Source: Thermoanaerobaculum sp.
Lineage (GTDB): Bacteria > Acidobacteriota > Thermoanaerobaculia > Multivoradales > UBA5704
Reading direction: 5' to 3'
Assembly (NCBI GenBank): GCA_021154885.1
Contig: JAJKHS010000143.1
Coordinates: forward strand, 62,001 to 126,000
Length of the DNA: 64,000 nt
Position numbers and translations under genes: made by a program. Under the pieces are notes generated by a model that was given only the letters and a program-made list of their open reading frames with translations, was not told where the DNA came from and did no database searches. Shown here in pieces: positions 11,178 to 41,891 of this stretch; position 1 is the stretch's first letter, and the number at the start of each line of letters is the position of its first letter.

Positions 11178-11743
11178 ATGCCAGCCCTGACGAGAGTGGT
11201 CCAGAGACGCTGCGAACAGCGCGAATGTGAGCGGTTCGGGATGCCGGTGGACGCGGGTGACGTCTGCCCTGCCTGCAAGAACCCCCTGGTGGTCAGGACG
11301 AAGTGGGAGGCCTGGTTGGCGCTGGTGGCCGGCGGAGTCGTGCTCGTGCTCGCCGTCATCGTCGTCCTGCTTCTGCGGCCCCACTCCTCTCCGCCCCCCG
11401 CCGTCGTGACCGCACCAACTCCCGCTGTCGTGACCACGCCAACGAGCCCGCCGCCACAAACACCGCAAACCCGCGCTCCCGCGCCGGGCGTGATTCAGGA
11501 GGCTGCGCTGGCTGTGAGCCGGGGGGAGACGCTGGCGAGCCAGGGCCTTTACGAGGAGGCCCGGCGCGAGTTCCTCCGCGCCACCGTGGCAGACCCGGAG
11601 AGCCCCATGGCCTGGGCCAACCTGGGAGCCGCCGCCGCCGTGACCCGGCCGTCGACGACCTGCGCCGCGACCCCGCCTTGCGCGGGCTCCTCGACGATCC
11701 CCGCGTCCGCGATCTGGCGGCGCAGCCGGGAGGAAGGTCATGA
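11178..11743 (+). CDS. Zinc-ribbon, TM and TPR protein, frameshifted near 11640
   Basis: The N-terminus has a C-x4-C ... C-x2-C zinc-ribbon-like pattern (CEQRECERF, CPACKNP), then one TM helix (ALVAGGVVLVLAVIVVLLL), a Pro/Thr linker, and one TPR (GLYEEARREFLRATVADPES). After ANLGAAAA the frame changes character: in the original frame it runs on as low-quality sequence to 12038, deep inside the caspase gene. In the next frame it continues as DPAVDDLRRDPALRGLLDDP and stops at 11743, overlapping the ATG of the caspase gene by 4 nt. I therefore infer a single-base indel at about 11630-11645, either a real mutation or a sequencing error. It is the first gene of a five-gene forward operon. Confidence 0.7.
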
Positions 11744-12888
11744 CCAAGCGCGCCCTGGTGATTCTCATCCTGGTCCTGTTGCCGGCAGCCGTCCCGGCGG
11801 TGGCCGAGAGCCCGAACTGCACGCAGGCGCGGTCCATGGTTGCCGACGCCCAGGCGATGGTCGAGGCCGGGCATCCCGACTACGCCGCCATCCTCAGCAA
11901 GATGAAGACGGCGACCGGACTCTGCGCCGCACTCGGCGATGCCTGGAAACACGCTTACTGCAGCGCCGTGGCGCTCGGGGACAAGAAGGCGAGCTTCTAT
12001 CGCGATCAGGCGGTTCTCAACGGTGTCAAAAGACTTGAGTGCGGATCGGGAGCGAGCGGCGCGACTCAGGCGCCGGTGCCGCTGCCCAGCCATGTTCGGG
12101 ACAAATACGCCCTGGTGATCGGGATCGGGAAATTCAAGGATCCCGACATTCCAACCCTCCAATTCCCCGCCAAGGACGCCCGCGACCTGGCCGCCGTGCT
12201 CAAGGATCCGAAATATGGCCGCTTCGATCCCGCGCACGTCGTCCTGCTGACCGACGAGCAGGCCACGCGGGCCAACATCCTCAGTGCTCTCAACGATCTC
12301 ATTGGCAAGGCGAAAGAGGACGACCTGGTCTTCCTCTACTTCAGCAGCCATGGCTCACCCCACCAGGAGGACGCGGCACTGCAAGGTGTGGGCTATATCG
12401 TCACCTACGACACGTCCCGCAAGAGCCTCTTCATCGACGCCCTGGAATATGAGGACTTCTCGCGCAAGGTCGCGCTCATCAAGGCGCGGCGCAAAGTCGC
12501 TTTCCTCGACACCTGCTACAGCGGCCAGGCCAAGCCAGGGGCCAAAGGGCTGTTCATCGAAGACGGACGCGGGATCGACGACAAGACGGCCCGCCTGTTC
12601 CTCTCGGGCGAGGGAACCTACGTCGTCACCTCCAGCAAATCCTCGGAGCGCTCGTTCGAGAGCGAAACGCTTCACAACGGCTATTTCACATACTACCTGA
12701 TCAACGCGCTCAAGGCCGGCTCGGAGCCGCCCACCGTGCGACAGGTCTTCGACGTCCTGTCGCGCGAGGTTCCGGCCGCCGTGCTCAAGGACAAAGGGGC
12801 ACCGCAGCACCCTCAAATCCTACCCGAGGATGGCCGCGGCGACGTCCGCATCGGCGTTTCGACCGTCGGCTCCTCAGGGAACCCCTGA
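11740..12888 (+). CDS. Caspase-family (peptidase C14) protein, exported
   Basis: A 382-residue protein with a signal peptide (1-22) and a helical region with several Cys (25-101), then a p20-like caspase domain from about residue 120. The catalytic dyad is visible: His204 in YFSSHGSP and Cys259 in FLDTCYSG, with the typical LVIGIGKF start strand. Caspase-like (metacaspase and orthocaspase) proteins cleave after basic or acidic residues and in bacteria often act in stress or death pathways. Here an exported form is predicted, which points to periplasmic action. The ATG overlaps the preceding frame's stop (ATGA). It is co-oriented with 12912, 14358 and 14887 and faces the CHAT operon. Confidence 0.88.
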   Translation: MTKRALVILILVLLPAAVPAVAESPNCTQARSMVADAQAMVEAGHPDYAAILSKMKTATGLCAALGDAWKHAYCSAVALGDKKASFYRDQAVLNGVKRLECGSGASGATQAPVPLPSHVRDKYALVIGIGKFKDPDIPTLQFPAKDARDLAAVLKDPKYGRFDPAHVVLLTDEQATRANILSALNDLIGKAKEDDLVFLYFSSHGSPHQEDAALQGVGYIVTYDTSRKSLFIDALEYEDFSRKVALIKARRKVAFLDTCYSGQAKPGAKGLFIEDGRGIDDKTARLFLSGEGTYVVTSSKSSERSFESETLHNGYFTYYLINALKAGSEPPTVRQVFDVLSREVPAAVLKDKGAPQHPQILPEDGRGDVRIGVSTVGSSGNP

Positions 12889-12911
12889 TCTGAAAGGCTT
12901 GGAGAATCGCC

Positions 12912-14228
12912 ATGAAAAACCCACTTTGCTTCATTACATCGGCTCTCATCGCCCTGGGACTCTGCCTCTCCGCGGCTCCCGCGGGCGCGGACTTCGGCTG
13001 GACCAAGAAGACGGCGACGCTGGTTCGGGTGAGCCCGCCGAAAGTCTTTCTCATGGGAACCCGGATCAACGTCAAGACCACGTGCCAGGATCCCGCAAAC
13101 CAGGCTCTGGCGGAGAAGATCCGCAGTCAGCTAGAAAGCTCGCTGATCAGCGCCGACAGCCGGCTCTCCGCGGACGCGGCCAAGCCCGAGGTCCTCGTCG
13201 ACGTCACGGTCCTCCAGAACGACTACAGTGAGAGCACGTCGCAGCGCCGTGAGGTCGAGCGGCGCCAGGTCGGCAAGGATGGGAAGGGCAAGCCGGTCTA
13301 CCAGGATTATGACGTGATGGTCAACTACAAGACCGTCTCCTACGCCTTCGGCGCCTCCTACAAGGTGAACGATCTGGTGAAAGGCGCCAGCCTCGACGCC
13401 GACACCGTGCGTTACGAGTTGAGGCAGGATTATCGGGAGGGTTCCGGCGCGCCCGAAAAGTTCAGCCTCGAGAGCTCGGGAGCGGAGGCGGTGGTGAACA
13501 AGATCGTCCCGCGGCTGACTCCCACGCGCGAGAAGATCGGGGTCCTGCTGCCCAAGAGCAGCCTCGAGACCTACCTGCCGCTCGGCGAGAACGGCCTGTG
13601 GAGCAAGTACCTCGAAGCGCTGTCCGGGCTGTCCGAGAATCCCAAAGCGAACGAGGAGTCCTACCGCCAATACGCTCTGGGCACGGCCTACGAGGCGCTG
13701 GGCTACGCCGCGGACGATCCGGACACCACCCTCAAATATCTCGAGCAGGCGGCCGGCTTCTACAATCACGCCATCGAGACCAACCCTGGAGAAAAGTATT
13801 TCTCCAAGCCTTATCAGAGCCTCTTCGGCAAGACCGCCGCCGCGCCGCTCGACCGCGTCAAACAGGCTTTGGGGGACTACCGCCGGATCAAGGAGTTCCG
13901 GGAGAGCTACGAGAAGATGCAAGTGGCCGCGAAATCCGCAGCGATGGCCGAGGGCGCCAAGGCTCTCGACCGTCCGGCGGGGGCGAGCGATGCCGTGGAC
14001 AACGCGGCGGTGATCCAGATGGTGCAGTCGGGTCTGCCTGAGGAGATCATCGCCAACTCCATCAACGCGGCACCACACTGCAACTTCGACGTCTCGCCCA
14101 AAGGGCTGGTGGAGCTCTCCCAGGCCAAGGTGAGCACCGGTCTCATCAAGCGCATCCAGGAGATCGCCGCCAAAGGGAAGGACGCCGGCAAGGGCAAGCC
14201 GGCCAGGAAAGCACCGAAGAAGGGATGA
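12912..14228 (+). CDS. Exported protein of unknown function with a C-terminal helical motif
   Basis: A 438-residue protein with a signal peptide (1-26, ending PAGA). The middle is mixed, with a conserved-looking DVTVLQNDYSEST. Residues 240-330 are TPR-like (QYALGTAYEALGYAADDPDT, EQAAGFYNHAIETNPGEKYF). Near the C-terminus, AVIQMVQSGLPEEIIANSIN and then SQAKVSTGLIKRIQEIA form a short helical motif also seen at the ends of other exported bacterial proteins. It ends in a Lys/Pro-rich tail. GGAG lies 6-7 nt before the ATG. It follows the caspase gene by 23 bp, so co-transcription is likely. No enzyme motif was recognised. Confidence 0.75.
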   Translation: MKNPLCFITSALIALGLCLSAAPAGADFGWTKKTATLVRVSPPKVFLMGTRINVKTTCQDPANQALAEKIRSQLESSLISADSRLSADAAKPEVLVDVTVLQNDYSESTSQRREVERRQVGKDGKGKPVYQDYDVMVNYKTVSYAFGASYKVNDLVKGASLDADTVRYELRQDYREGSGAPEKFSLESSGAEAVVNKIVPRLTPTREKIGVLLPKSSLETYLPLGENGLWSKYLEALSGLSENPKANEESYRQYALGTAYEALGYAADDPDTTLKYLEQAAGFYNHAIETNPGEKYFSKPYQSLFGKTAAAPLDRVKQALGDYRRIKEFRESYEKMQVAAKSAAMAEGAKALDRPAGASDAVDNAAVIQMVQSGLPEEIIANSINAAPHCNFDVSPKGLVELSQAKVSTGLIKRIQEIAAKGKDAGKGKPARKAPKKG

Positions 14229-14357
14229 ACGTCTCCAGTGCCACATATGAGTCTCGTTCCGTGTGCGCCTCTGAGCTTGGACGAAATCCATTGATGATGA
14301 ATCATAGTTTGCCTACCTATCCAGTTGAGCCGTGCGGTCTCGAGTCAAGGAGGAAGT

Positions 14358-14723
14358 GTGACATCCTCGCAAAAAGAAAACTGCCACGTCATAATTCATG
14401 GAGCTTCAACCGCTGCCGCCGGCGTCGGCGCTGGCCTTGCCCAGCTTCCGGTGGCGGATCACATTGCCCTGATTCCCATTCAGGTCGCAATGGTCATTGC
14501 GCTGGGCAAAGTGTTCGATGTCCATCTCACCGAATCAGCCGCCAAGGGAGTGATCTACACGGGTGTTGCCGCTACAGTAGGTCGCGCAGTGTCGCAGATC
14601 CTGGTCGGGTGGATTCCTGGAATCGGCAACGCGATAAATGCTGCCACGGCAGCAGGCCTTACCGAGGCTCTTGGCTGGGCGACCGCGAATCGATTTGAGC
14701 GTGGTGATATCAAGAGTAGTTAA
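14358..14723 (+). CDS. Small membrane protein, DUF697-like
   Basis: A 121-residue protein. From residue 30 it is hydrophobic with Gly-rich kinks (HIALIPIQVAMVIALGKVF, then VGWIPGIGNAINAATAAGLT), the pattern of the DUF697 domain found fused to membrane GTPases. A GTG start at 14358 is chosen because AAGGAGG lies 4-5 nt upstream. An ATG-less extension to 14325 has no SD. The local GC is lower than in its neighbours, as is the preceding 129-bp gap. It is the fourth gene of the caspase operon. In other genomes DUF697-type proteins associate with GTPases; here none is adjacent. Confidence 0.65.
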   Translation: MTSSQKENCHVIIHGASTAAAGVGAGLAQLPVADHIALIPIQVAMVIALGKVFDVHLTESAAKGVIYTGVAATVGRAVSQILVGWIPGIGNAINAATAAGLTEALGWATANRFERGDIKSS

Positions 14724-14731
14724 GCTAGTGC

Positions 14732-14810
14732 GGCGGCTCAATGGTTTCGAGCCTGTCCAGCCGGAGACGCGGGTCGCAGGCGACTGAGCCGCCTGACTCC
14801 GCTGCAGCGG
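14732..14810. repeat. Long stem-loop and palindrome between small membrane gene and DUF4384 gene
   Basis: GGCGGCTCA at 14732-14740 is the exact reverse complement of TGAGCCGCC at 14785-14793, with about 44 nt between them. A perfect 12-bp palindrome CCGCTGCAGCGG follows at 14799-14810. These lie within the 163-bp gap of an otherwise compact operon and may attenuate or process the transcript. Confidence 0.4.
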
Positions 14811-14886
14811 ACACCGCCCGGGCGTTTCGCCTTGGCGGGCCGCTGAGTTCAAAGGCCGATAAACGTCTCAACGAGGAGGTCCGGAC

Positions 14887-15657
14887 ATGCGAGCATATGG
14901 TTTGACTCTCCTCGCCGCACTCCTGTGGAGCGGCGTGGCGAACGGAGCCGAAGCACCTATTCCGGGTGCCAAGGAACTGTTTTATAATCCGGCGGGCGAC
15001 CACTTGTCGAACAGCGCTCCGGCGAAAGCGCCGGTTAGAAAATCGGGCGGCAAACGCTCCGCCGCGAGCTCGGTCGCGACGGGTGGTTCCTCGGCGCGCC
15101 GACCGGTGCAAAACGTCTTAAACCCCGCAGCCCAGAAGGTCCTCGGCCTCAGCTACTGGATCGAGTTGGAGGGAGCCAAGGGACAGCCCGGCACCCAGGT
15201 GACGAATCAGCGGATCTTCCGGTCGGGAGAGCGGATCCGGCTCCATTTCCGCAGCAACGCCGAGGGCCAGATCGCTCTGATGATGCTCGGCTCCTCCGGT
15301 AACGCGACTTTCCTCTTTCCGGACGTCGAAAAGCGGCTGACAGATACCAACCTGGAGGCGGACCAGGATCGCGTGCTTCCCGACGACTCGGCCTGGTTCA
15401 CCTTCGACAATCGCCCTGGCACCGAGCGGTTGCTGGCCGTCTTCGCCAAGAGCAAAGCCGACGTGGACTCTTTGTCGATCGGCCCGGCCATGGATTCGAA
15501 GACGACCGAGGCGGTATTGCAGACGGCGGAGAAGCAGCGGGGAAGCAAGGACCTGGTGATCGAGACGGAGACCCGGAAGGCGTCGGAGATCGGCACCTAC
15601 GGCGTCACTCACAGTGGCAAGCCGGTCATTCTGGAAATCGATCTCAAGCACGAGTGA
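14887..15657 (+). CDS. Exported DUF4384-like protein
   Basis: A 256-residue protein with a signal peptide (1-20, ANGA) and a disordered Ala/Ser/Lys linker (35-75). A beta domain from about 85 has the look of DUF4384 (GERIRLHFRSNAEGQIALMM, then FLFPD), a small domain that often accompanies caspase-like or kinase-like proteins. GAGGAGG precedes the ATG. It is the last gene of the caspase operon and ends 107 bp before the convergent NTPase of the CHAT operon. That gap shows no gene. The combination of caspase, TPR and DUF4384 in one operon is known in environmental bacteria, but the job is undetermined. Confidence 0.72.
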   Translation: MRAYGLTLLAALLWSGVANGAEAPIPGAKELFYNPAGDHLSNSAPAKAPVRKSGGKRSAASSVATGGSSARRPVQNVLNPAAQKVLGLSYWIELEGAKGQPGTQVTNQRIFRSGERIRLHFRSNAEGQIALMMLGSSGNATFLFPDVEKRLTDTNLEADQDRVLPDDSAWFTFDNRPGTERLLAVFAKSKADVDSLSIGPAMDSKTTEAVLQTAEKQRGSKDLVIETETRKASEIGTYGVTHSGKPVILEIDLKHE

Positions 15658-15764: not shown

Positions 15765-18209
15765 CTAGTCTCCTGCCAGGGCGGCAAGCAGGCGAGGGGC
15801 GGCCGGTGTGCGGGTGATGATCTCGATGGCGAGCGCTTCGAGGTCGGAGCCCGGCTTGGCGAAGTCGGGATCGAACTTGAGGAGATGCAGGACCTCCTGC
15901 CGGACCTCCGGGCTCTCGGCCGAGATCAGGCCGTCGAATAGATCGATGACCGTTCCACGGCAGGCAACGGCAGAGCACGCCTGCCGGGCCCAGGTCTTCA
16001 GTGCGCTGAGCCACCTCTTGCGCAGAGCCTGGCGGAGGATGCCGGGAAACGGCGAGGTGCGAGAGTAGAGATTTTCGAAAAACTTGCCCAATCTTCGCGT
16101 CGCGTCGCCCCCAAGCCTCCAGGCCCAATAGAGGATGGCACTGCATCCTTCGCGTTCGTCTGCCTCGAGCTCATTTCCCCTGGTCATATCCACTTTGAAA
16201 CTGTTGAGAATGTCGATCAGTCCGTCGCGACTCAGGGCGACGAGCGTGACCAGGTGAGCCAGGGGCTCGTCCGGTTTCTGGCTCCATTCACTCAAGCGAT
16301 CGACCAGCGCCATCGCGGAGTCGTCGTAGAAGAGGCAAAGATCGGTCAGGGTTATGTAGACCGATTCGAGGATCTCTTGCTCTCTGTCGCTGAGCAGGGG
16401 AGCGATGTTTCCCGTCTGGAGCCTCAGCAGCGCGCTCAGCGCCTCCGTCGTGTCTGCCGGATTCCGCGCTGCCCTCTCAATCAACTCCACCCGCCGATAT
16501 ATCTTCCCGAGGTCCTCGAAGCGGGGAGCGAGTCGGGTGGACAACACTCTCCTGATTTCCTGAAAGGCCAGGCTCGGATCGGCCGCTCCGATCTCGCTCA
16601 GGCAGAGGATACCTGTGCAGGTTCTCTCCAGATCGTGATTGGACAGAGTCGCACGGAGCTCGCGGAGGCAGAGAGCCTTATAGCTACTCGCATTGCTTCC
16701 GAGAACACCTTGGAGAAACTGGCCGAGGATCCTGGCACGAAGCTGGCGGTCGTCGCCTGGCGGCCCCCAGATCAGCGGCATTGCCAGCCCGTAGGGATCC
16801 AACTCGGCGATCCTCCCGAGCGCCCTCGCCGCCGTGATGCGCAAGGAGGGCACAGGGGAGCGCAGGAGGTCGCGCAGGGCAGGCATGAGCGCTCCCAGGA
16901 TCTGGCGACCCGGGCCCAGCAGGCTCTTCCAGAGACGGACCGGATAGAACTTCTCCCGAAATCGGATGGCGCAGGCTTCGCCGCCGCTGGCTTGATCAAT
17001 CTCGGCCGCTGCGACTTGGCGCAACTCTTCCTCGCCGCAAAGGCAACTCGGGTTGCGTTCTCCAGGCTTGCGTCTCAACTCGCGATGCAGAACACGGGTC
17101 AGGACTTGGCGGAGCTGGTCGAAGTCGATCCAAGCGACCCTCTCGGAAGACGCAGCCGTCGCGTGGCACAGAGTCAAGGCCAGAACGTAGCTCCAGGCCG
17201 CGAAATCCTCGGCGAGGCTTTTGAGAAACCAGGGTCCGAGATCGTCGACGCGATCCAGAGCCTCGTCGAGGGAAAGGGAGCCTTTCGCCACCATCAGCAG
17301 CAGCTCCTGGACGAAACGCGTGATCCGGGGCATGGTTCCAAGCTTGGTAGCGATCCGCTCCCCTTCGGCCTCGAGGAGCGACCGGATCTGGGCACGATGC
17401 TCTTCGGCTTCGGGGCGTGAGCTCAACAGGTGTTCAACCTTGGATTGCAAACCCTCGACAAGAAGGTCGGCGGGTATAGGAGCCAATTCGCACAGGAGGC
17501 CAAGGCTGCTCAGCCTTTCGCGGTTTTCGATCTGGTCGGCGTCCGAAGTGAACAACAGGAAGCTTCGGTTCTCCGCCAGTCGTCGCGAGTAGCGGGCCGC
17601 CTCGGCCTCGTTCAACTCGCTGGCGAAGCGGTTGAGGTCGATACTCTTCTTGGCGAAAGCGTCCTTGAAGATCACTAACCTGCCTTGATAACTGGGAGAC
17701 TCAGCGAGCTCCTGAAAAGAAATTTCAGTTCCTCGATCCACAGGGCTGGAGTAAAAGAGCACCCCACGAGTTTTTCCGTCTCCGAGCCGGAGGGCGAGCG
17801 TGCGCGCGATGGTAGCTTTGCCGCTCTCCGGACCTCCAATCAGGAACAGGAAGCGCCGCTCCCTCAATCGCTGGATCAGAGGTTCGAGATCGGGGTGAAT
17901 GATTTCATCGTTCTCGCGTTCCAGGTCTTCAGGGGAGAATCGCTTGAAGTCCTCGGGTTGGAGACGTTTTCGCTCCTTCCCCTCTGCCCGGTTGATATTA
18001 ACGGTCTTATTGATCGTCTGAGCGATATCAGCCCCGCCCTCGACACTGCCGATGTTGGCTTCGACCCTCCAGTCGTCTTCGCCCTTTTTCTTCTCTCCGG
18101 CTTCGTCGTGGTGCGGTAGCTTGACGCGCTCCTCTTCGTCCGTCAGCTTCTCGGGAAGGACGGGGTTTGAGCTCGGATCTAGTTTCGGCTTGTCTGCCAT
18201 GACGCCCAT
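15765..18209 (-). CDS. P-loop NTPase (STAND-like) with HEAT-like repeats
   Basis: An 814-residue protein. The N-terminal 45 residues are charged and disordered. Residues 47-72 are a small beta motif (VEANIGSVEGGADIAQTIN) resembling the end of the CHAT protein. The NTPase core starts near 110: FLFLIGGPESGKAT at 120-133 is a Walker A in which Ala replaces the Ser/Thr that normally follows the Lys. LVIFKDAF is Walker-B-like and RSFLLFTSDADQI resembles sensor 1. From about 430, helical repeats of HEAT type occur (LRITAARALGRIAELDPYGL). This is the layout of STAND signal NTPases: adaptor, switch, superstructure. The start may be the ATG at 18200, which has a better SD (GAGGG). It is the last gene of the CHAT-SPFH-NTPase operon, 4 bp behind the SPFH gene. 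Confidence 0.75.
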   Translation of the reverse strand: MGVMADKPKLDPSSNPVLPEKLTDEEERVKLPHHDEAGEKKKGEDDWRVEANIGSVEGGADIAQTINKTVNINRAEGKERKRLQPEDFKRFSPEDLERENDEIIHPDLEPLIQRLRERRFLFLIGGPESGKATIARTLALRLGDGKTRGVLFYSSPVDRGTEISFQELAESPSYQGRLVIFKDAFAKKSIDLNRFASELNEAEAARYSRRLAENRSFLLFTSDADQIENRERLSSLGLLCELAPIPADLLVEGLQSKVEHLLSSRPEAEEHRAQIRSLLEAEGERIATKLGTMPRITRFVQELLLMVAKGSLSLDEALDRVDDLGPWFLKSLAEDFAAWSYVLALTLCHATAASSERVAWIDFDQLRQVLTRVLHRELRRKPGERNPSCLCGEEELRQVAAAEIDQASGGEACAIRFREKFYPVRLWKSLLGPGRQILGALMPALRDLLRSPVPSLRITAARALGRIAELDPYGLAMPLIWGPPGDDRQLRARILGQFLQGVLGSNASSYKALCLRELRATLSNHDLERTCTGILCLSEIGAADPSLAFQEIRRVLSTRLAPRFEDLGKIYRRVELIERAARNPADTTEALSALLRLQTGNIAPLLSDREQEILESVYITLTDLCLFYDDSAMALVDRLSEWSQKPDEPLAHLVTLVALSRDGLIDILNSFKVDMTRGNELEADEREGCSAILYWAWRLGGDATRRLGKFFENLYSRTSPFPGILRQALRKRWLSALKTWARQACSAVACRGTVIDLFDGLISAESPEVRQEVLHLLKFDPDFAKPGSDLEALAIEIITRTPAAPRLLAALAGD

Positions 18210-18213
18210 TCCC

Positions 18214-19386
18214 TCAGGCCAATTCGCCCTTTAATCTACCGCTGTCCTGCAGCCGCCGCAGGAATTGCGTCTGTTCATCGCTCAGCTCGCGGAAGAGTTT
18301 CCTCATCTCCTGCCCCAGGGCTTCGGAGTAGCGCTGCGCCACGGCCTCCTCGGCCTCATTTCCGCGGAGCGCTTCGGCGACCAGATGCAGAGCGGCCGAG
18401 GCAATGCGCCGTTTGTCTTCGGGCCCGCATACAAGGCCGCTCACCAACTCCAAGGTCCGGGACAATAGACCGCCGAGACTCCCGCTCATCGCGACGTGGG
18501 CGGGCAACTGCTGCACCGCCGCCGGCGGCAGGAATCCGGTGCCCGCGGATGCAACGGGCGAGCCGCTCGTGGTGAGACCTTGGAGGCCGGCCTTGATAGC
18601 CTGGAGGTCGGGCAGGGTTTGCCGGACTTCGCTGAAGGTCCGGATCTCGCCGGCCGCGCGGGTGATGACGTTGGCGGTGGCGGTCGCCATGGTGCTGCGC
18701 ACCTTCTGTCCGTCGTCGAGCCCTGTGATCTGTTGCTTGTGTTCCACCTGCTGGACGTGGTACTCGTGAGTGACCTGTTCGATCTCCTTGTTCTCGTGGA
18801 GTTTCTTTTTGGCTTTGGCGACCCGCAGCTCTTCTTCCGGGAGGATCCGGGAGACCGAGACGCCGCGGATCTCGATCCCGATCTTGCGGGCAAAACGCTG
18901 GATGAGATCCAGGTTGGTGCTTGTCCCAGTCCCATCCGGGGCCTGCTGGAAGAGAGTGGCTCGTTCCAGCGCAGTCTCATCCTCGATGACCGACCAATCG
19001 AGTGGGCGGAGAGCCACCCGGAAGGTCTCCCCAGCCTCCTGCTCGATGCGCAGCAGCGGATCGGTCGACAGCTTCTCGACGAGACGCAGCGGATTCGCTA
19101 CCTGATAGATCAGGGCGAAGCGCAGCGTGAACGACCGCGTCTGATCCTTGTAATCGAACTCCCGGTGGAAGACGTGACGGAGGCTGTCGTCCTTGGATAC
19201 GGCATAGGTCACGAAAGAGGTCGCGCTTTCGAACAGCCTGGGCTTGAAGATGCGGTTCGGCTGGACGATCTCCTGGAACTTCAAGCCATCGCCGACTTTC
19301 CGGAAGACGACCAAGTCGTGGTCGGGGACAGGATGGAATCCTTTGGTTTCCCGGACGAGATTCGCCTGTTCGGTGAGGTTCGCCAT
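18214..19386 (-). CDS. SPFH/band-7 domain protein
   Basis: A 390-residue protein. Residues 25-190 read as an SPFH domain: RSFTLRFALIYQVANPLRLV and the LDLIQRFARKIGIEIRGVSV strand-helix, then PEEELRVAKAKKKL, typical of stomatin/flotillin proteins. A coiled coil follows (HENKEIEQVTHEYHVQQVEH), then a Gly/Ala linker and a C-terminal helical domain of about 90 residues. No N-terminal TM helix is seen, unlike classical stomatins, so it may bind membranes peripherally or act as a scaffold. An SD (GGAG) sits inside the end of the CHAT gene, 3 bp away. Placement between a CHAT protease and a P-loop NTPase strongly suggests one functional unit. Confidence 0.75.
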   Translation of the reverse strand: MANLTEQANLVRETKGFHPVPDHDLVVFRKVGDGLKFQEIVQPNRIFKPRLFESATSFVTYAVSKDDSLRHVFHREFDYKDQTRSFTLRFALIYQVANPLRLVEKLSTDPLLRIEQEAGETFRVALRPLDWSVIEDETALERATLFQQAPDGTGTSTNLDLIQRFARKIGIEIRGVSVSRILPEEELRVAKAKKKLHENKEIEQVTHEYHVQQVEHKQQITGLDDGQKVRSTMATATANVITRAAGEIRTFSEVRQTLPDLQAIKAGLQGLTTSGSPVASAGTGFLPPAAVQQLPAHVAMSGSLGGLLSRTLELVSGLVCGPEDKRRIASAALHLVAEALRGNEAEEAVAQRYSEALGQEMRKLFRELSDEQTQFLRRLQDSGRLKGELA

Positions 19387-19389
19387 GGC

Positions 19390-20721
19390 TCAGCTCCGGT
19401 TGATCCTGCCGCCGATGTAGACGCCTTTACCGCTCTTGATGTCGCCCGCTTTCACTTGGGTGCGGAGGGTCTCGGGGACGCTGGCGCGCCTGCCAGCTCC
19501 CAGGCCTTGGTTCAACTCGCCGAAGAGAAGGACCTCCTCATGGCTCTCGATATCTCCGACCTCAAAGGAGCTCTCTGTGGTGCCGGCGGCTGGGCTCTCC
19601 TTCTGCGCAGCGAAGAGATGACCATCCGGGAGACGCATGAACAGCATCGGCGTCGCCCACTCCAGAGAGTCGGGATCACCATTGTGCATTGCGATCCGAC
19701 CCTCGGCCACGGCCGCGTCGACCGGATCGCCGGCGGCGAGGCGCTCGTAAAGAGACTTGCTGAAAACGATGGCCGCCGGGTCCGAGATGCCACGGCGCAT
19801 CGCCACCACGGCCGGCACGCCTGCCCTGACCAGCGCCGGCGCGACTCCCGCGAAGGGATGACGGCCGGGCTGGTCCGAGGTCCGGCCGGTCTGGCAGGCA
19901 TTAAGCACGACGAGTCGCGGTCGGCCCTCGCCGCGCAGCACCGTGGCGAGGGCCTCGTCGCGGACCGTCTGGGGCGCGCCGCTCGAAGTCTCGAACAGGA
20001 GGTGGCCGGCGCCTCGGGCATCATCGAAGCCGCCATGACCCATGAAGTGGAAGACGTGCTGAGGGGAGGAGAGGAGGTGTTGGCGCAGCGTGTCGAGGGT
20101 GGGCCTCTCCAGGAACGAAATCTCGACGTTGTCGGAGCGCCAGGCATTCTTCAACGCTTTGCGCTCGGCGTCCAGATCGAGCGGCGTCGTTGCTTCCGCA
20201 TTCGCGATCACTACCAGGATGCGCAGAGGGGGGCGGAAAGGAACGGGACGGTTCGGCTCTGAGACTTCGAGGTAACGCACCACCGGATTCAGCCGATCGA
20301 GGCTGAGGAAGCGGCCGGTCTCGGGATCTTGCAGCGTTTCCCAAGGCAACCCGGATATGCCCGCCAACCGTGGCTCTCGCGGATCGATCCGGATCTTCAC
20401 CCGGACTCCTCGCTCCCTGGCCTGGGCGGCGGTTCGGGAGGTCGCGAAGAGCTGGCGGATCGCGCCCTGGAAGAAGGTCTCGAAGAGGCGCTCTCCGATC
20501 TGAGGGCTGACGATGGTCGCCTCCGCCGCGAGGTCGAGCTCCCGGATCGGTCTACTCGCAGAAGACCCCAGTCCGGTTCTCGCTTCGCTTTCCAGAGCCT
20601 CTACCACTTCACGCCCAAGGGCTCCCTGTTCCTCGCCCTCCGTCGAATCAGCGGTAATCCGGAACTTGTCGGTTCCGTCCGGCAGGATCCGCAGCACGAA
20701 ATCCTCGTAGTCTATGGCCAT
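19390..20721 (-). CDS. CHAT-domain caspase-like protease
   Basis: A 443-residue protein. Residues 90-370 form a CHAT domain. Catalytic His229 lies in HVFHFMGHGG and Cys276 in VVLNACQTG, and the strands LRILVVIANAE and GVPAVVAMRR are typical. The N-terminal 90 residues are a separate small domain (DYEDFVLRILPDG). The C-terminal 60 residues contain two short beta motifs (EVGDIESHEEVLLFGELNQG and VKAGDIKSGKGVYIGGRIN). CHAT proteases are the effectors of several bacterial immune systems, for example with gasdermins. The ATG at 20721 is chosen because GGAGGG lies 4-5 nt upstream; the frame extends to 20766. It is the first gene of the three-gene operon, 79 bp behind the sensor-kinase gene on the same strand. 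Confidence 0.88.
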   Translation of the reverse strand: MAIDYEDFVLRILPDGTDKFRITADSTEGEEQGALGREVVEALESEARTGLGSSASRPIRELDLAAEATIVSPQIGERLFETFFQGAIRQLFATSRTAAQARERGVRVKIRIDPREPRLAGISGLPWETLQDPETGRFLSLDRLNPVVRYLEVSEPNRPVPFRPPLRILVVIANAEATTPLDLDAERKALKNAWRSDNVEISFLERPTLDTLRQHLLSSPQHVFHFMGHGGFDDARGAGHLLFETSSGAPQTVRDEALATVLRGEGRPRLVVLNACQTGRTSDQPGRHPFAGVAPALVRAGVPAVVAMRRGISDPAAIVFSKSLYERLAAGDPVDAAVAEGRIAMHNGDPDSLEWATPMLFMRLPDGHLFAAQKESPAAGTTESSFEVGDIESHEEVLLFGELNQGLGAGRRASVPETLRTQVKAGDIKSGKGVYIGGRINRS

Positions 20722-20800
20722 GGGCCCTCCACCCATCTCTGGAGTGAGGAGACACGGCTCTGTCACCGCTTGTTTAGGAAGCTCAAGTGGGTCCTTTTTG

Positions 20801-23314
20801 TCAGTCCCCCCGCCGCGGGTCCCCCCGCTCGCTGGCGGGTACCCGCCAGGTGACTCGGTAGGTGCCGGCGCGGGGCTCGAAGGCGAGGTCCCGCCACTCG
20901 AAGAGGCGGGCGAGGCGTTCGAGAATGCGGCGGCCGCCGTAGGACTCGCTGCGGTCGCGGACGGGGCCGCCGGGCGCGGCGGGGAGGTCGTTCTCGATCT
21001 CGAAGACGAGCTCCCGGCGCACCCGGTCGAGGGCGATGCGCAACGCCGGCGTCGAGCCCGGCCGGCCGTGGCGGACGGCGTTGATCAGCACCTCGCCGAG
21101 GAAGAAGCCGAAACCCCCGCGCACCGGGCACGAGAACCAGAGCTCCTCCGGCCAGTCCATCTCTGTCGTGAAGACGGGCGCCGACCCCGCGGGCCGCTCG
21201 GAGAGCACGCCGTTGTCCCAGTGCAGGCGGGCACGCAGGTCGGCGTCCCCGGCCGCCAGGGCGAAAACGCTCGCCAGGCGCTCGATCGTCGTCCGCGCCT
21301 GGGCGGCCTCCACGGAGCTGTCCGGCGGCAGGGGCGGCCGGGCGTCCCAGTGGTCGAGCAGCCAGGCGGTGGTGCGCAGCCGGCGGTCGACGTAGCCGCC
21401 GAGCCAAGCCACGAATTCCGGGTCGGAGGCCGCTCCGGTCGTGCTCCGCAGGCCGTGGGCGAGCACCCGGATCAGCGCGTCCACGCCGTGCGAGAGGAGG
21501 CCGGCGAGCTTGCGGCGCTCGTCCTGGCGGGTATCGTCCTCCAAGTCCTCGGTGAGCAGGGCGAGGTCCACCTCCGGCTCCAGCACGAAGAGGACGCCAA
21601 GCCGGTGCCGCTCGTCGGCCTTCAGCGCCTCGATGGGGGCGGTCACGGCCACCGAGCGGACGATGGCGTAGCGCTCCTCCTCGCCGCCGTCCTCCCCCCG
21701 CACCCGCACCGGCACGCCGTAGGCCCGGCGCGGCTCGGGTCTCGCCACCTGCATGCGCTCGTAGTGGGCCCGCGCCCGTGGGTCCGGCGACACCATGTCG
21801 CCGAAGCGGGAGCCGGGACGCACGCCCAGGTTCTCCGCCGCCTGATTGCCGAAGACGACTTCGTCCGTGTTGGGGTCCACGACCATCAGCGGCACCTGCA
21901 TGGTGTTGAGCAGGTTCTGCTTCTCGGCCAAGGCGCCTTCTGCCTTCGCTTGCGCCCGCTCAGCCCGCCGCCGGTTGAGCTCGAAGCCCGCCAGGAGCGC
22001 CACCAGCATCACCGCCGAAAGCAGCACGGGCACCAGCGGCTGGTGGGACTGGGTCTTGGGAAACAGCACCACGAGCCAGGTGGTGGCCGCCACCTGGAAG
22101 GCCGCGACCGCGCCCTGGCCCTCGACCACGCCATGGAGGAGGTAGGGCGTGCTTTCGGCGGCGGCAACGCCGGGCCGCTGCGCCGCGAGGGCGGAGATGG
22201 CGTTGCGCAGGGCCGCCGGCCGGGAGCCCGGCAAGCCGCCGGCGATGTCCGCCCAGGGATGGGCTCCGGCCGGCGCCGCGGTGAAGTGGGCGACGCCGGC
22301 CGTCATCGGCGGCTCGATGCCGCGGGCGAAGGCCTCCCAGTCGATGTCGAACGTCAGGTCGGCGCCCACCAGCCCCCGCTCGCCAGCGGCGGCGCGCAGG
22401 GGGACGGTGATGGTGGCCACGAGCCCCTGACCGCCGAGGTCGAGGTAGAGCCCCGAGTAGAAGGTCTGGTCCTCGGGCGTGCCGTAGTCGAAGCGGAAAT
22501 AGAACTCGTTGGAGACGAACGTGGGCCGCTCCGGCGAGCTCCGGAAGCCGCGCCCCTCGAGGAGGGTGGCGCGGCGGCTCGCCTCGGGATCGAAGGGGCC
22601 GGGCGGGCCATTGGGAATGGGTAGAGAGACGAGCGTGCCGTCTTCTGAGAGGGCATAGAGACGCACCACCCGCGGCGGGCGGCTCCCCGGCAGCGCCGGC
22701 AGGGGGTGCTCGGCCAGCACCTGCGGCAGCTCCTTGGAGAGGGCCAGGACGTGCGGTGTGGCGAAGGCGAGAAAGCGGTTCGAAGGGTTCGCGAGGTCCG
22801 CGAGGTCTGGTGAGTCCAGGGCCGTGCGGCGGGTGATGGCGAACCAGCGGCGGTCGAGCTCGAGGAAGCTCTGGGTGCGCAGGGAGAAGGGGCCGGGCGG
22901 ATCACCCAGCGGATCGGGAGAGACGAGCCGCGGCCGGACCGCGATCTCCGGCGGGCGGGCGGGGCTCGCCAGGAGCTGGCGCAGGGGGGCGAAGAACGGC
23001 GGCACCGAGCGCGTGTCCTGCCACTCCGCCACCTCGCCGTAGAGCCGCGCCTTGACCGGGTCGGCGATGCGCTCGCGGTAGCGCCGCAGCTCGAGGTTGA
23101 GCCAGGCCGAGGCGCCCGGAGTCTCCGTGGGCCGCGACGGGGTCTTCCCCTGTACGAGCTGGAAGATGACGTCCGACCGGCTCTGGCCGATCCGCTGCTG
23201 CCACTCCTGCCGGATGGACGTCGCGGCGAGGGCCACCAGGACGGCGAAGAGGAAGACGCCCAGGAAGAGCAGGCGGGAGCCCCAGCGGCGCGTGCGTTCG
23301 GGATCGGAGGACAT
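20801..23314 (-). CDS. Membrane sensor histidine kinase-like protein with PAS domain
   Basis: An 837-residue sensor. A TM helix near the N-terminus (LLFLGVFLFAVLVALAAT), a large extracytoplasmic region of about 400 residues, and a second TM (PVLLSAVMLVALLAGFEL) are followed by a PAS domain (LNTMQVPLMVVDPNTDEVVF). The C-terminus is a GHKL ATPase: FFLGEVLINAVRHGRPG (N box) and SYGGRRILERLARLFEW (G2-like). A phosphoacceptor His is not obvious; LLSHGVDALIRVLAHGL is the best candidate. I used the ATG at 23314 because the upstream extension to 23359 runs into the divergent gene. No SD is seen, which fits a leaderless start (TATACT ten bases upstream). No response regulator is adjacent. It is divergent from 23340. 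Confidence 0.83.
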   Translation of the reverse strand: MSSDPERTRRWGSRLLFLGVFLFAVLVALAATSIRQEWQQRIGQSRSDVIFQLVQGKTPSRPTETPGASAWLNLELRRYRERIADPVKARLYGEVAEWQDTRSVPPFFAPLRQLLASPARPPEIAVRPRLVSPDPLGDPPGPFSLRTQSFLELDRRWFAITRRTALDSPDLADLANPSNRFLAFATPHVLALSKELPQVLAEHPLPALPGSRPPRVVRLYALSEDGTLVSLPIPNGPPGPFDPEASRRATLLEGRGFRSSPERPTFVSNEFYFRFDYGTPEDQTFYSGLYLDLGGQGLVATITVPLRAAAGERGLVGADLTFDIDWEAFARGIEPPMTAGVAHFTAAPAGAHPWADIAGGLPGSRPAALRNAISALAAQRPGVAAAESTPYLLHGVVEGQGAVAAFQVAATTWLVVLFPKTQSHQPLVPVLLSAVMLVALLAGFELNRRRAERAQAKAEGALAEKQNLLNTMQVPLMVVDPNTDEVVFGNQAAENLGVRPGSRFGDMVSPDPRARAHYERMQVARPEPRRAYGVPVRVRGEDGGEEERYAIVRSVAVTAPIEALKADERHRLGVLFVLEPEVDLALLTEDLEDDTRQDERRKLAGLLSHGVDALIRVLAHGLRSTTGAASDPEFVAWLGGYVDRRLRTTAWLLDHWDARPPLPPDSSVEAAQARTTIERLASVFALAAGDADLRARLHWDNGVLSERPAGSAPVFTTEMDWPEELWFSCPVRGGFGFFLGEVLINAVRHGRPGSTPALRIALDRVRRELVFEIENDLPAAPGGPVRDRSESYGGRRILERLARLFEWRDLAFEPRAGTYRVTWRVPASERGDPRRGD

Positions 23315-23324
23315 GACCGGACTC

Positions 23325-23332
23325 AGTATAGT
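23325..23332. promoter_or_regulatory. Overlapping divergent -10 elements
   Basis: On the + strand TATAGT (23327-23332) ends 7 nt before the ATG at 23340. On the - strand TATACT (23325-23330) ends 10 nt before the ATG at 23314. The two start codons are only 25 bp apart and neither has an SD, so the shared AGTATAGT block could drive both genes and prevent them from firing together. Confidence 0.45.
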
Positions 23333-23339
23333 AGCCGGC

Positions 23340-24377
23340 ATGAGCTGGGTCGGAGCCACGGGCTTCGCGCGGCGGCCGCTGGTCGTGGCCGAGGACCATC
23401 TGCATCACGTCTCGGAATTGCTGGCGGTGTTGGCGGCGGCCGGCGTCGGCTTGGTGGCGCAGGCGACCGTGCTCTGCCTGGACCGGCCGGGTCCGGACAC
23501 CACCCGCATCGCCGCCGGCTGGCTGGAGCGCTATCCCGGCCTGCAGGTCGCGGCCCGTTTTGACGGCGACGTGCCGGAGCCTCTCCGGCCCCGCCACGCC
23601 GTCCTCGACGCCGCCGTGTTCGAGAGCGCCAACCGCTTCGCCAAGGCTCTCGCCGGCCTGCTCCGCCCGGGCGGCCTGCTGCTCCAGGACATCCAGCTCT
23701 CGACGCTCGCTTTCATTCCCCCGGACCGCTGGTGGGAGTCCATCTACCTCGCCACCACGGTGCGGGGGATGTTCGCCGAGAATCCGCCCACCGGCCGGTT
23801 CCTCTCCAACAAGCGGGGCTACGAGGCCACCTTCGGCCGCGACCTCCTCGACGCCGGTTTCGATCCGCGCGACGTGATGGACAAGAGCGAGCTTCAGGAG
23901 ATGGTCCTGCCGGTCGTGCGGGCCTCGCTCGACCGCGCCTTTCCCCTGGCCCTCCAGGTCATCGGGGGAGGGGAGACGCCTCCCATCGCCTGGGTGGGCA
24001 GGACCGAGGAGGACCGCCGGGAGGTGGAATCCGAGCTGGACCTGGTGGTCTGGTGCGGCGGTCCGGGTGTCGAGATCGGCGGCCGTCTTCTTCCACGGCT
24101 GTCCTGCAAGGCGGGGAGCCAGGAGGCGGTCACCTGGACCGAGCTGGTGGAGGACCGCCTGCGGGGCGGCGACGGGGTCCCCGTCCTGGAGGTCGGGACG
24201 CGGATCGCACCGGAGGGGGCCGGCCGGGCCGAGATCACCAACCTCGCGGCGCGGCACGTCCACGGTCTGCGCGGCCGGCTGCGCGAGGGCGGAGCGATCG
24301 TGACCGCGCACCATGCGTACCGGCTCGCCGACGGGATTCGGATTGGCAAGGTGCAACCGCGCAAAACGGTTCTGTAG
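23340..24377 (+). CDS. Uncharacterised protein, possible methyltransferase-like fold
   Basis: A 345-residue soluble protein. The first half alternates strands and helices (VSELLAVLAAAGVGLVAQAT), and LRPGGLLLQDIQLSTLAFIP resembles the strand after motif II of class I methyltransferases, but I see no clear SAM-binding glycine loop. The second half contains PPIAWVGRTEEDRREVE and a His-rich stretch ARHVHGLRGRLREG. The ATG at 23340 is preferred on grounds of the leaderless -10 at 23327; the frame is open to 23097 but inside the divergent kinase gene. I do not recognise a family. Divergent pairing with the sensor kinase hints at a shared regulon. Confidence 0.6.
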   Translation: MSWVGATGFARRPLVVAEDHLHHVSELLAVLAAAGVGLVAQATVLCLDRPGPDTTRIAAGWLERYPGLQVAARFDGDVPEPLRPRHAVLDAAVFESANRFAKALAGLLRPGGLLLQDIQLSTLAFIPPDRWWESIYLATTVRGMFAENPPTGRFLSNKRGYEATFGRDLLDAGFDPRDVMDKSELQEMVLPVVRASLDRAFPLALQVIGGGETPPIAWVGRTEEDRREVESELDLVVWCGGPGVEIGGRLLPRLSCKAGSQEAVTWTELVEDRLRGGDGVPVLEVGTRIAPEGAGRAEITNLAARHVHGLRGRLREGGAIVTAHHAYRLADGIRIGKVQPRKTVL

Positions 24378-40719: not shown

Positions 40720-41637
40720 CTATCCGGCGACAAAAGGCAGGGCCGGCGGGAAGCTGCCGGCGGGGAAGGGGGCGGCTCGATCCCCTCGACGCAGCTTTTC
40801 GGCGGCATCGCGGAAGGCTCCCACGAACCAGGAGTAGGCCTCGTAGAACGCCCTGCGCGCCGCCTTGGTCGCGGCATGCACCCGCGGTGCTGGCGAGCGG
40901 GCGAGCTGTTTCGGCCGGTACAGGGGATCCCGAGCCAGAATGGCGTCGACTCCTACGACCTGGGTCCCAGCCGCTTCTCTGGCGACGGCGGCTTCGGCTT
41001 CAATGTCCTCTCCCAGGGAGGCGACGCGTTGACGGTAGGCTTCGTCCGAGAGATGAGCCCAACAGGGAAGCGGGGAGAGGATCACGGTCTCAGTCGTCGC
41101 GTACTTGAATCGGCTGTACTCTTCTCCGCGAACCCGGGCCGCATGCTCCTGGCTGCGGTCGAACCAGTGGCCGGTCATGGGAGTGCCTTCGAGCAGGGCT
41201 CCAAAGCAGTGGACGCCGGGCCAATCCAGAATCCGTTCCACGAGCTGCTCTTTGACGCCCTGCGCCAAAATATACTTGAAAATCTCTACTTGGGCGGCCT
41301 CCTCGTCGGTGACGACGGCCATTTCGTAGCGTCGGTCGAAGACCGTTCCGCTCCAACCCGTCAGGCGGTTGGTCTCCAGGGCCAGCTTGGATTTGAAGTT
41401 CCGCATGAAGTCGGCCGCGTGTTTGACGTCGTCGACCACCGACAGCAGGTGGAAGTGGGTCGACAGTACTGAAACAGCGCAGAGCTCGACTTCGCAGTCC
41501 CGCTGGGCTTTCCCGAGAACACCCAGAAAGACGTCGTTGAATTCCGGGCCGGGACGGAACAGATAGAGTCCCTGGATGGTCCGGCAGGTGATGTGGACGA
41601 GGGTCTTGGGCTTGGGTACGTAGCGAAGTTTTCTCAT
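40720..41637 (-). CDS. REP-associated tyrosine transposase (RAYT)-like protein
   Basis: A 305-residue HUH (Y1) transposase-like protein. The HUH motif is seen in VSVLSTHFHLLSVV and the nucleophile Tyr in FKYILAQGVKEQLV, followed by WPGVHCFGALLEG. RAYTs cleave single-stranded DNA at REP hairpins and are usually single-copy and domesticated. The start at 41637 (GAGGG upstream) is preferred; the frame runs to 41739. It is longer at the C-terminus than typical RAYTs by about 100 residues (helical, rich in Ala and Arg). GCCGGC hairpin repeats lie close to its 3' end. Confidence 0.82.
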   Translation of the reverse strand: MRKLRYVPKPKTLVHITCRTIQGLYLFRPGPEFNDVFLGVLGKAQRDCEVELCAVSVLSTHFHLLSVVDDVKHAADFMRNFKSKLALETNRLTGWSGTVFDRRYEMAVVTDEEAAQVEIFKYILAQGVKEQLVERILDWPGVHCFGALLEGTPMTGHWFDRSQEHAARVRGEEYSRFKYATTETVILSPLPCWAHLSDEAYRQRVASLGEDIEAEAAVAREAAGTQVVGVDAILARDPLYRPKQLARSPAPRVHAATKAARRAFYEAYSWFVGAFRDAAEKLRRGDRAAPFPAGSFPPALPFVAG

Positions 41638-41891
41638 GCCCTCTATAAACGGAAAAACTCGCTCCCATCGCTCAACTATTTTGGTCGTGGTCGAGACGGG
41701 CATCGATCTAAAGCGGACTGGTCTACTGCTAGAAAACAAGATGTGGAAATCGACATGATGACCCTATGTCAGTTGGGTCGGCCGGCGTCAGGCTGACCGC
41801 AGGAGGTTGCCAGGGCTAGACCCTGGTCAGCCCCCCAGAATCGACCCCTAGCACCTGGAGGGCCCAGGGTGCCCACTTGCGTTGCGCCTCG

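What the first reader, a model, noticed from the sequence alone, without database searches (positions are those of the whole stretch)
15765..20721. Three-gene operon: CHAT protease, SPFH/band-7 protein, P-loop NTPase with HEAT repeats
Seen: three genes with gaps of 3 and 4 bp on one strand, a CHAT domain with both catalytic residues (His229, Cys276), a band-7-like protein without an N-terminal TM, and an NTPase in the layout of STAND signalling proteins. Known: CHAT proteases and STAND NTPases are common effector and sensor parts of bacterial immunity, and SPFH proteins organise membranes. Inference: the NTPase senses, the SPFH protein scaffolds at the membrane, the CHAT protease acts. I do not know of a described system with exactly these three parts.
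Basis: partly seen in the sequence, partly recalled or inferred. Interest (0 to 1): 0.85.

Follow-up and report, generated by a model that had tools for sequence, protein, structure and literature searches.

The report
CHAT protease, SPFH and NTPase cassette
A bacterium of the class Thermoanaerobaculia carries a compact, patchily distributed three-gene cassette (a caspase-like protease, a membrane-organising type of protein and a nucleotide-binding protein) that looks like a rare, modular immunity system, though its function is untested.

Summary
In detail: three co-oriented genes with 3-4 bp gaps encode a CHAT protease with intact His229/Cys276, an SPFH protein without a TM helix, and a P-loop NTPase with C-terminal HEAT repeats. 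The cassette is accessory: in a sister genome the genes that flank the 9.7-kb stretch holding it lie 10 bp apart. The exact trio was found in no other genome searched (searches of limited sensitivity), but its parts recur in modular loci. The SPFH + NTPase pair recurs in another Thermoanaerobaculia genome beside TIR, ZorA/ZorB-like and trypsin-like genes. Short-tailed CHATs recur beside NTPase-like proteins, once with an SPFH-like protein and ZorAB-like channel, once with a DUF4407 membrane protein. Best reading: a modular STAND-type conflict system in which the NTPase/HEAT protein senses, the SPFH or membrane partner places the complex, and an exchangeable protease executes. CHAT's tail holds a repeated beta-type motif resembling the N-terminus of the G093 NTPase, suggesting BASS-like (amyloid) recruitment, but the pair within this window is not above chance. 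The STAND label rests on sub-threshold nSTAND3 matches. No anti-phage activity is shown. New variant of a known kind.

The parts
19390..20721 (-). CHAT-domain cysteine protease, 443 aa from ATG (an in-frame GTG at 20766 would give 458 aa)
   Evidence: PF12770 E 2.1e-29, PADLOC SAVED_CHAT 4.2e-23
20035..20037 (-). catalytic His229 codon (HFMGHG)
   Evidence: 37 of 37
19894..19896 (-). catalytic Cys276 codon (LNACQT)
   Evidence: 37 of 37
19393..19572 (-). CHAT C-terminal tail with two imperfect copies of a beta-type motif (..GDIESHEEVLLFGELNQ.. and ..AGDIKSGKGVYIGGRINRS)
   Evidence: score of the two halves (split chosen by eye) reached by 0 of 2000 shuffles
18214..19386 (-). SPFH/Band-7 protein: beta/alpha domain (aa ~23-181), long helix (~184-241), Gly/Pro/Ser linker (~273-303), helical C-terminus; no TM helix
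   Evidence: (low-confidence model)
15765..18209 (-). P-loop NTPase with HEAT repeats, 814 aa (alternative start 18200)
17994..18065 (-). N-terminal stretch of the NTPase (VEANIGSVEGGADIAQTINKTVNI), candidate partner of the CHAT tail
   Evidence: inference; similarity to the window's CHAT tail not above chance
17811..17837 (-). P-loop GGPESGKAT (A after K)
   Evidence: alignment with two relatives
15774..16943 (-). helical, HEAT-like region (aa ~423-812; confident only in parts, from about aa 441)
   Evidence: PF02985 3.1e-6 at aa 441-469; model; the 50 Foldseek matches listed are mostly HEAT/ARM-type solenoid proteins, with low TM-scores
11054..20800 (.). 9.7-kb stretch absent between homologues of the same two flanking genes in sister genome G002; holds the caspase/DUF4384 block and the trio

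Best explanation
A modular, accessory conflict (probably anti-phage, abortive-type) cassette. Inferred working: the NTPase/HEAT protein is the STAND-like sensor and switch. On sensing an invader through its HEAT arm it assembles and, through a short N-terminal beta motif, recruits the CHAT protease by its C-terminal tail, activating it by proximity. The SPFH protein forms an oligomeric ring or cage that concentrates the complex at a membrane, or is itself the protease's co-encoded substrate. The active protease cleaves target(s) and arrests or kills the cell. Shown: gene order, intact CHAT residues, SPFH-type fold and HEAT repeats, presence/absence between sister genomes, recurrence of SPFH + NTPase beside another protease and ZorAB-like/TIR genes. 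Inferred: sensing, assembly, recruitment through the motif, target, outcome.
For: Tight co-oriented cluster. SPFH + NTPase pair in G093: NTPase 30% identity over 429 aa, pairwise E 4e-42; SPFH 23%, 1e-11, in a run TIR - ZorA-like - ZorB-like - X - SPFH - NTPase - trypsin-like (ZorB1 model E 2.4e-25). CHAT + NTPase-like neighbours in G003, G022 and G044. The G022 NTPase matches the window's (E 3.8e-6 pairwise, filter off; 2.7e-4 in a larger set). G003 continues into an SPFH-like gene and ZorA/ZorB-like genes. Absent between the flanking genes in sister genome G002; SPFH not found in the 2 same-genus genomes and 1 same-family genome searched (completeness 93, 82 and 90%). GC3 0.74-0.80 against a median of 0.885 for 26 other window ORFs.
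Against: The exact trio occurs once in all searches. No phage or defence assay. nSTAND3 matches are below cutoff; the P-loop is unusual; PDB matches of the NTPase region are G-alpha (2.7e-4) and AAA+ proteins such as ClpB and Midasin (0.003), not STAND proteins; the G093 NTPase has no PADLOC match. The G022 NTPase does not match the G093 one significantly (0.29). G003/G044 NTPase-like proteins lack a recognisable P-loop and their homology to the window's is not demonstrated (hhalign E 0.098 and 0.41). The G003 'SPFH' is weak (Band_7 0.061, below cutoff; no SPFH relative in the PDB by sequence). The tail/N-terminus similarity in this window is not above chance. Most CHATs read here are not beside such NTPases. 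Whether the 9.7 kb was gained here or lost in G002 is not settled, and GC3 of five of the 26 other ORFs is 0.79 or lower.
Confidence: 0.5

Rival explanations
1. SPFH as protease substrate and executioner: as bacterial gasdermins and Csx30 are encoded with caspase-like proteases that cut them, CHAT cleaves the SPFH protein in its Gly/Pro/Ser linker, releasing a ring that damages or rearranges the membrane.
For: SPFH sits directly after CHAT; in G022 the gene after CHAT encodes a DUF4407 transmembrane protein, though 1190 bp away; CHAT cleavage of Csx30 in Type III-E systems is stated in a table passage of PMC10952713. The gasdermin comparison is recalled; that paper only cites it.
Against: In G093 the SPFH gene is beside a trypsin-like protease gene and no CHAT is in the run; no cleavage site is evident; SPFH assemblies are usually scaffolds (general knowledge).
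Confidence: 0.2
2. Housekeeping membrane quality-control module, like HflK/C with FtsH: an SPFH cage regulating a protease, with the NTPase as chaperone or adaptor.
For: Regulation of a protease is a known SPFH role (general knowledge); Foldseek matches a chain of the E. coli FtsH-HflKC complex.
Against: Patchy occurrence: SPFH in 2 of 98 related genomes and 1 of 396 across the phylum; presence/absence between sister genomes; the pair sits with TIR and ZorAB-like genes in G093.
Confidence: 0.15
3. A regulatory proteolysis or programmed-cell-death module without a phage role, perhaps linked to the adjacent caspase/DUF4384 block.
For: The window has a C14 caspase block next door; the genome has at least 11 related CHAT genes.
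Against: The caspase block is conserved at another place in G002, where no SPFH relative was found; the G093 context is defence-like.
Confidence: 0.15

Closest known systems
BASS / bacterial amyloid NLR signalosomes (Dyrka et al. 2020, not seen, cited in PMC10907252; review PMC7889193 and PMC8086366, passages seen)
   Same: Effector and NLR-type protein encoded by neighbouring genes, effector C-terminal motif and NLR N-terminal motif; CHAT and TIR are named among the effector domains that carry BASS
   Different: Described as two-gene clusters, here an SPFH gene lies between; a shared motif between the window's two proteins is not demonstrated; NTPase is HEAT-type with weak STAND support
VMAP/iSTAND ternary conflict systems (Kaur et al. 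2020, PMC7159879, passages seen)
   Same: Peptidase effectors, Band7-like superstructure domains, HEAT repeats and STAND-type components, exchange of proteases
   Different: No MoxR or vWA protein among the 10 window proteins scanned; SPFH is a separate gene
Zorya (PMC11890865, passages seen)
   Same: Relatives G093 and G003 carry ZorA/ZorB-like channel genes in the same gene run
   Different: No such gene among the 10 window proteins scanned; no ZorC/D/E match among the relatives' proteins scanned; NTPase, SPFH and protease instead
Bacterial gasdermin and Csx30 protease-substrate pairs (gasdermin recalled; Csx30 in a PMC10952713 passage)
   Same: Caspase-like (CHAT) protease with a co-encoded candidate target
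   Different: No gasdermin match among the 10 window proteins scanned; SPFH protein instead
SAVED-CHAT proteases (PADLOC model)
   Same: CHAT catalytic region, E 4.2e-23
   Different: No SAVED domain and no nucleotide cyclase among the 10 window proteins scanned
HflK/C-FtsH complex (general knowledge)
   Same: SPFH protein paired with a protease and an NTPase function
   Different: CHAT cysteine protease and a separate NTPase; SPFH lacks a TM helix

Membership tests
CHAT protease (PF12770) | CHAT domain above curated cutoff | tested here: met
   103.3 bits, cutoff 24
CHAT protease (PF12770) | His/Cys dyad | tested here: met
   H229/C276, 37 of 37 compared
SPFH/Band 7 | Pfam Band_7 above cutoff | tested here: not met
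   18.7 bits against 23.6
SPFH/Band 7 | SPFH fold | tested here: met
   6 of 6 PDB matches with E<=0.001 come from SPFH-protein entries; model pLDDT 48; no PDB relative by sequence
SPFH/Band 7 | membrane association and ring oligomer | not testable with these tools
   no TM helix
STAND NTPase (nSTAND3) | profile above cutoff | tested here: not met
   22.2 bits (window) and 25.6 bits (G093) against 27.2
STAND NTPase (nSTAND3) | Walker A and Walker B | tested here: inconclusive
   GxxxxGK kept but followed by A/Q/W then T; one invariant Asp in the Walker B place
STAND NTPase (nSTAND3) | C-terminal repeat region | tested here: met
   HEAT PF02985 27.4 bits, cutoff 23.5; helical model
BASS amyloid signalosome | neighbouring effector and NLR-type genes | tested here: inconclusive
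   CHAT and NTPase genes in one cluster with SPFH between them; NLR/STAND identity of the NTPase not established
BASS amyloid signalosome | shared motif at effector C-terminus and NLR N-terminus | tested here: inconclusive
   window pair 357/2000, 544/2000 and p 0.11; window tail against G093 N-terminus 31/2000, 7/2000 and 0/1000
BASS amyloid signalosome | amyloid formation | not testable with these tools
   -
Zorya | ZorA and ZorB in the gene cluster | tested here: not met
   none among 10 window proteins scanned; present in G093 and G003
VMAP ternary system | MoxR + vWA partners | tested here: not met
   none among 10 window proteins scanned; one VMAP-M0 match in the NTPase at E 0.058, below cutoff
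Bacterial gasdermin operon | gasdermin gene | tested here: not met
   no gasdermin match among 10 window proteins scanned

The most novel reading that the evidence does not exclude
A new class of bacterial immune signalosome whose core is an SPFH cage plus a HEAT-NTPase, onto which different executioners (CHAT, trypsin-like, TIR) and a ZorAB-type ion channel are plugged, with prion-like tail motifs coupling protease to sensor: a protease-activating platform built on an SPFH scaffold.
Probability: 0.2. Interest if true: 0.85.

Novelty: new variant of a known kind. Interest (0 to 1): 0.6.

Why it matters
If confirmed it would give an SPFH protein a defined role in bacterial immunity (as scaffold or protease substrate), link Zorya-type channels to protease effectors, and extend motif-based recruitment of CHAT proteases to Thermoanaerobaculia. 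The predictions (C276, P-loop, tail motif, SPFH) can be tested one by one in a laboratory host.

Tried and rejected
Fixed, conserved trio: rejected as stated. SPFH single-protein search 2 of 98 genomes; SPFH pair profile 1 of 396 in the phylum draw; NTPase 1 of 396; NTPase pair profile 8 of 148 in the class, of which only G000 and G093 match at full length, the other six covering at most 131 of 850 columns. The draws overlap in genomes and the searches are insensitive: G022, which the class draw included and which holds a related NTPase, is not among the 8 matched genomes. Counts are lower bounds.

Other collections: genome contigs, SPFH none, NTPase alignment one relative, JADGNY010000023.1 (Thermoanaerobaculia MAG Chersky.31_28), the same contig as G093:C228 by length and content. 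Viral contigs none; plasmids none. Not searched: phages, E. coli genomes, metagenome contigs.

Stray matches not believed: IS630 transposase model on the SPFH protein (19.2 bits, cutoff 100); G-alpha on the NTPase (2.7e-4 whole-sequence, no stretch passing on its own).

G003/G044 NTPase-like protein as a demonstrated homologue of the window NTPase: not supported. The two are clearly related to each other (E 7e-115) and found in 2 of 147 genomes.

Homotypic motif: of the four same-locus pairs only G003 reaches p<0.05 (0.045; 24/2000) among 20 combinations; the window 0.11, G022 0.218, G044 0.288. In the window row two other NTPase N-termini score higher than its own. I keep it as a lead only. 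G093's TIR tail shows no match above chance (332/2000 against its NTPase, 304/2000 against the window CHAT tail).

Short CHAT tails and NTPase neighbours: the 37 CHATs are 35 from 32 of the 36 loci L051-L086 (L064, L076, L085 gave no CHAT ORF; L086 is the G002 flank), the window's, and G044's. Six have tails of 80 aa or less; 4 of these 6 (window, G003, G022, G044) lie in a cluster with an NTPase-like gene. No blastp relative of the window, G093, G022 or G003 NTPases was found in the other loci; two other loci (L062, L071) have a P-loop-like pattern in an unrelated downstream gene. Fisher p 2.3e-4 for 4 of 6 against 0 of 31, but the split is post hoc. The window is listed with tail 0 because it was aligned to itself; measured like most others its tail is about 65-73 aa. 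G044 came from a later fetch of 8 regions chosen partly for short open frames; 6 of these held CHAT ORFs, and the other 5 (L090, L091, L093, L095, L096) were left out of the 37; no window-NTPase relative was seen beside them, but nor was one in L089 (G044) by that test. Regions were chosen from the better hits, not all of them.

Base composition: the 26 comparison ORFs are window ORFs over 230 aa picked by a codon-position rule, with one doubtful pick (23732) dropped.

Rfam and tRNA: nothing at threshold in the window. Structure models are low-confidence (mean pLDDT 48 and 52); TM-scores are low, so Foldseek is used for fold class only, and the NTPase domain itself is not confidently modelled.
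Full report
Observation. Three minus-strand genes lie head to tail at 15765-20766. In order of transcription they encode a CHAT protein, an SPFH protein and a P-loop NTPase with HEAT repeats, separated by 3 and 4 bp. The NTPase may start at its second ATG (18200): a GAGGGA stretch directly precedes the first ATG and the relative's start aligns with the second. CHAT is unambiguous (PF12770 E 2.1e-29). HEAT passes its cutoff; the predicted model is helical from about residue 423, with fair confidence in parts from about 441, and the 50 Foldseek matches listed are mostly HEAT/ARM-type solenoids. Band_7 is below its Pfam cutoff and sequence searches of the PDB find no SPFH relative, but the six Foldseek matches of the SPFH model with E<=0.001 are all from SPFH-protein entries: prohibitin, stomatin, FtsH-HflKC and flotillin. 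The model itself is weak (pLDDT 48). Hydropathy shows no TM helix.

The NTPase. Residues 111-199 match nSTAND3 below cutoff in the window protein (E 1.2e-4) and likewise in its G093 relative (1.1e-5). A PADLOC mad8 model also matches the window protein (6.7e-6) but nothing in PADLOC matches the G093 one. PDB matches at the P-loop are G-alpha (2.7e-4) and, with a three-row profile, AAA+ proteins such as Midasin and ClpB (about 0.003). The P-loop keeps GxxxxGK, but the next residue is A, Q or W in the three aligned proteins, followed by T. This is unusual and I do not explain it. 'STAND-like' is a working label, not a demonstrated membership.

Accessory region. In sister genome G002 (same genus, 82% complete) the homologues of the window genes 9260-11053 and 20801-23359 are adjacent, 10 bp apart (L086). 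In the window 9.7 kb lies between them: a caspase/DUF4384 block (11740-15657) and the trio. The caspase block is conserved elsewhere in G002 (L049). The SPFH gene has no match in the two same-genus genomes or the one same-family genome searched. One sister genome cannot tell gain here from loss there. Trio GC3 is 0.74-0.80 against a median of 0.885 for 26 other window ORFs, but five of those are at 0.79 or lower, so composition is only a hint of foreign origin.

Relatives. The SPFH-NTPase pair recurs in G093 (Thermoanaerobaculia MAG, contig JADGNY010000023.1): NTPase 30% identity over 429 aa (pairwise E 4e-42), SPFH 23% (1e-11). There the run is TIR, MotA/ExbB-like, OmpA-like, an unknown, SPFH, NTPase and a trypsin-like (Nal1-type) protease, nearly contiguous. 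PADLOC scores the channel genes as ZorA-like (5.1e-8) and ZorB-like (2.4e-25). So the pair is kept while the protease differs (CHAT here, trypsin-like there).

CHAT loci. CHAT relatives are common: 56 of 147 class genomes match, and the window's own genome has at least 11. I read 35 regions chosen from CHAT hits (32 gave CHAT ORFs) and 8 more. Among the 37 CHATs tabulated, most have long tails, 19 with a TM-like stretch, and relatives of the window, G093, G022 or G003 NTPases were not found beside the others. Four short-tailed ones differ, the window's among them. In G003 (same family): CHAT, an 876-aa protein without a recognisable P-loop, an SPFH-like 763-aa protein (Band_7 0.061 only), ZorA-like and ZorB-like genes, mostly overlapping by 4 bp. 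In G022: CHAT, then after 1190 bp a DUF4407 membrane protein (1.9e-13) and a 1435-aa NTPase that matches the window's (E 3.8e-6 pairwise; 2.7e-4 in the larger set) but not G093's (0.29). In G044: CHAT and a relative of the G003 876-aa protein (E 7e-115), next to a contig end. The homology of the G003/G044 protein to the window NTPase is not demonstrated. Two further short-tailed CHATs (L073, L077) have no such neighbour.

A candidate coupling motif. The last 60 residues of the window CHAT hold two imperfect copies of a beta-type motif (0 of 2000 shuffles reach the score, with a split chosen by eye). The second copy, AGDIKSGKGVYIGGRIN, resembles AGDVKADTVNIGPRYN at the N-terminus of the G093 NTPase (31/2000; 7/2000; 0/1000). 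Against its own NTPase's N-terminus it is not above chance (357/2000, 544/2000, 0.11). Of the three other same-locus pairs only G003 is nominally significant (0.045) among 20 combinations. By eye each short-tailed CHAT and its NTPase-like partner share a short string (EQ..VQG in G003, VNNY in G044, GR..Y.A in G022), but the scores do not carry this. The review PMC7889193 (passages seen) says BASS motifs occur also with CHAT and TIR domains, which makes amyloid-type recruitment a sensible hypothesis, no more.

Mechanism. Most likely a STAND-like conflict system: NTPase/HEAT sensing, motif- or contact-driven recruitment and proximity activation of the CHAT protease, and SPFH as oligomeric scaffold near a membrane (or as protease substrate), ending in cleavage that stops the cell. 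Shown: genes, SPFH-type fold, HEAT repeats, catalytic residues, presence/absence, modular relatives with defence-type genes. Inferred: every step of the mechanism.

Known systems. Kaur et al. 2020 (PMC7159879, passages seen) describe Band7-like domains among superstructure-forming parts, and proteases among exchangeable parts, of vWA-MoxR ternary systems; no MoxR or vWA is among the 10 window proteins scanned. Zorya (PMC11890865, passages seen) shares the channel genes of the relatives only. In the library searched, no paper holds 'band 7' with 'CHAT domain' and none holds SPFH, CHAT, bacterial and peptidase together as whole words. The listings (5 of 5; 25 of 36; 15 of 431; 8 listed, 9 found) showed nothing that by title and start of abstract describes such a trio. 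The library is open-access only and most subscription papers are missing, so this is not proof of absence from print.

Verdict. Real, rare in the genomes searched, accessory, modular; a new variant of STAND/protease conflict systems with an SPFH part. Interest 0.6.

Noticed in passing
window 11740-15657 (+): Caspase (C14; EACC1-associated type 1.8e-35 but below cutoff), a 438-aa protein, a DUF697-like small ORF and a DUF4384 protein form a block that is conserved at another place in sister genome G002 (L049).
   Followed up: partly
L004:5397-13345: G093 run TIR - ZorA-like - ZorB-like - X - SPFH - NTPase - trypsin-like: Zorya-like channel genes with protease, NTPase and SPFH genes.
   Followed up: partly
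L070:1390-9937 (-): G003 run CHAT - NTPase-like without P-loop - SPFH-like - ZorA-like - ZorB-like, most genes overlapping by 4 bp.
   Followed up: partly
L069:1928-10336 (+): G022 CHAT, DUF4407 membrane coiled-coil protein and a 1435-aa NTPase with a long acidic N-terminus.
   Followed up: partly
window 17811-17837 and relatives: P-loop GK followed by A, Q or W where S/T is usual, in three aligned NTPases; unexplained.
   Followed up: no
window 40720-41739 (-): Weak Y1 (IS200-like) transposase match (7e-4, below cutoff).
   Followed up: no
genome G000: At least 11 related CHAT proteases in one 8.2-Mb genome (all 11 candidates scored matched).
   Followed up: partly
L068: A gene near a CHAT of G029 matches the OmpA/ZorB-like protein of G093 (E 3.3e-4); not examined.
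   Followed up: no
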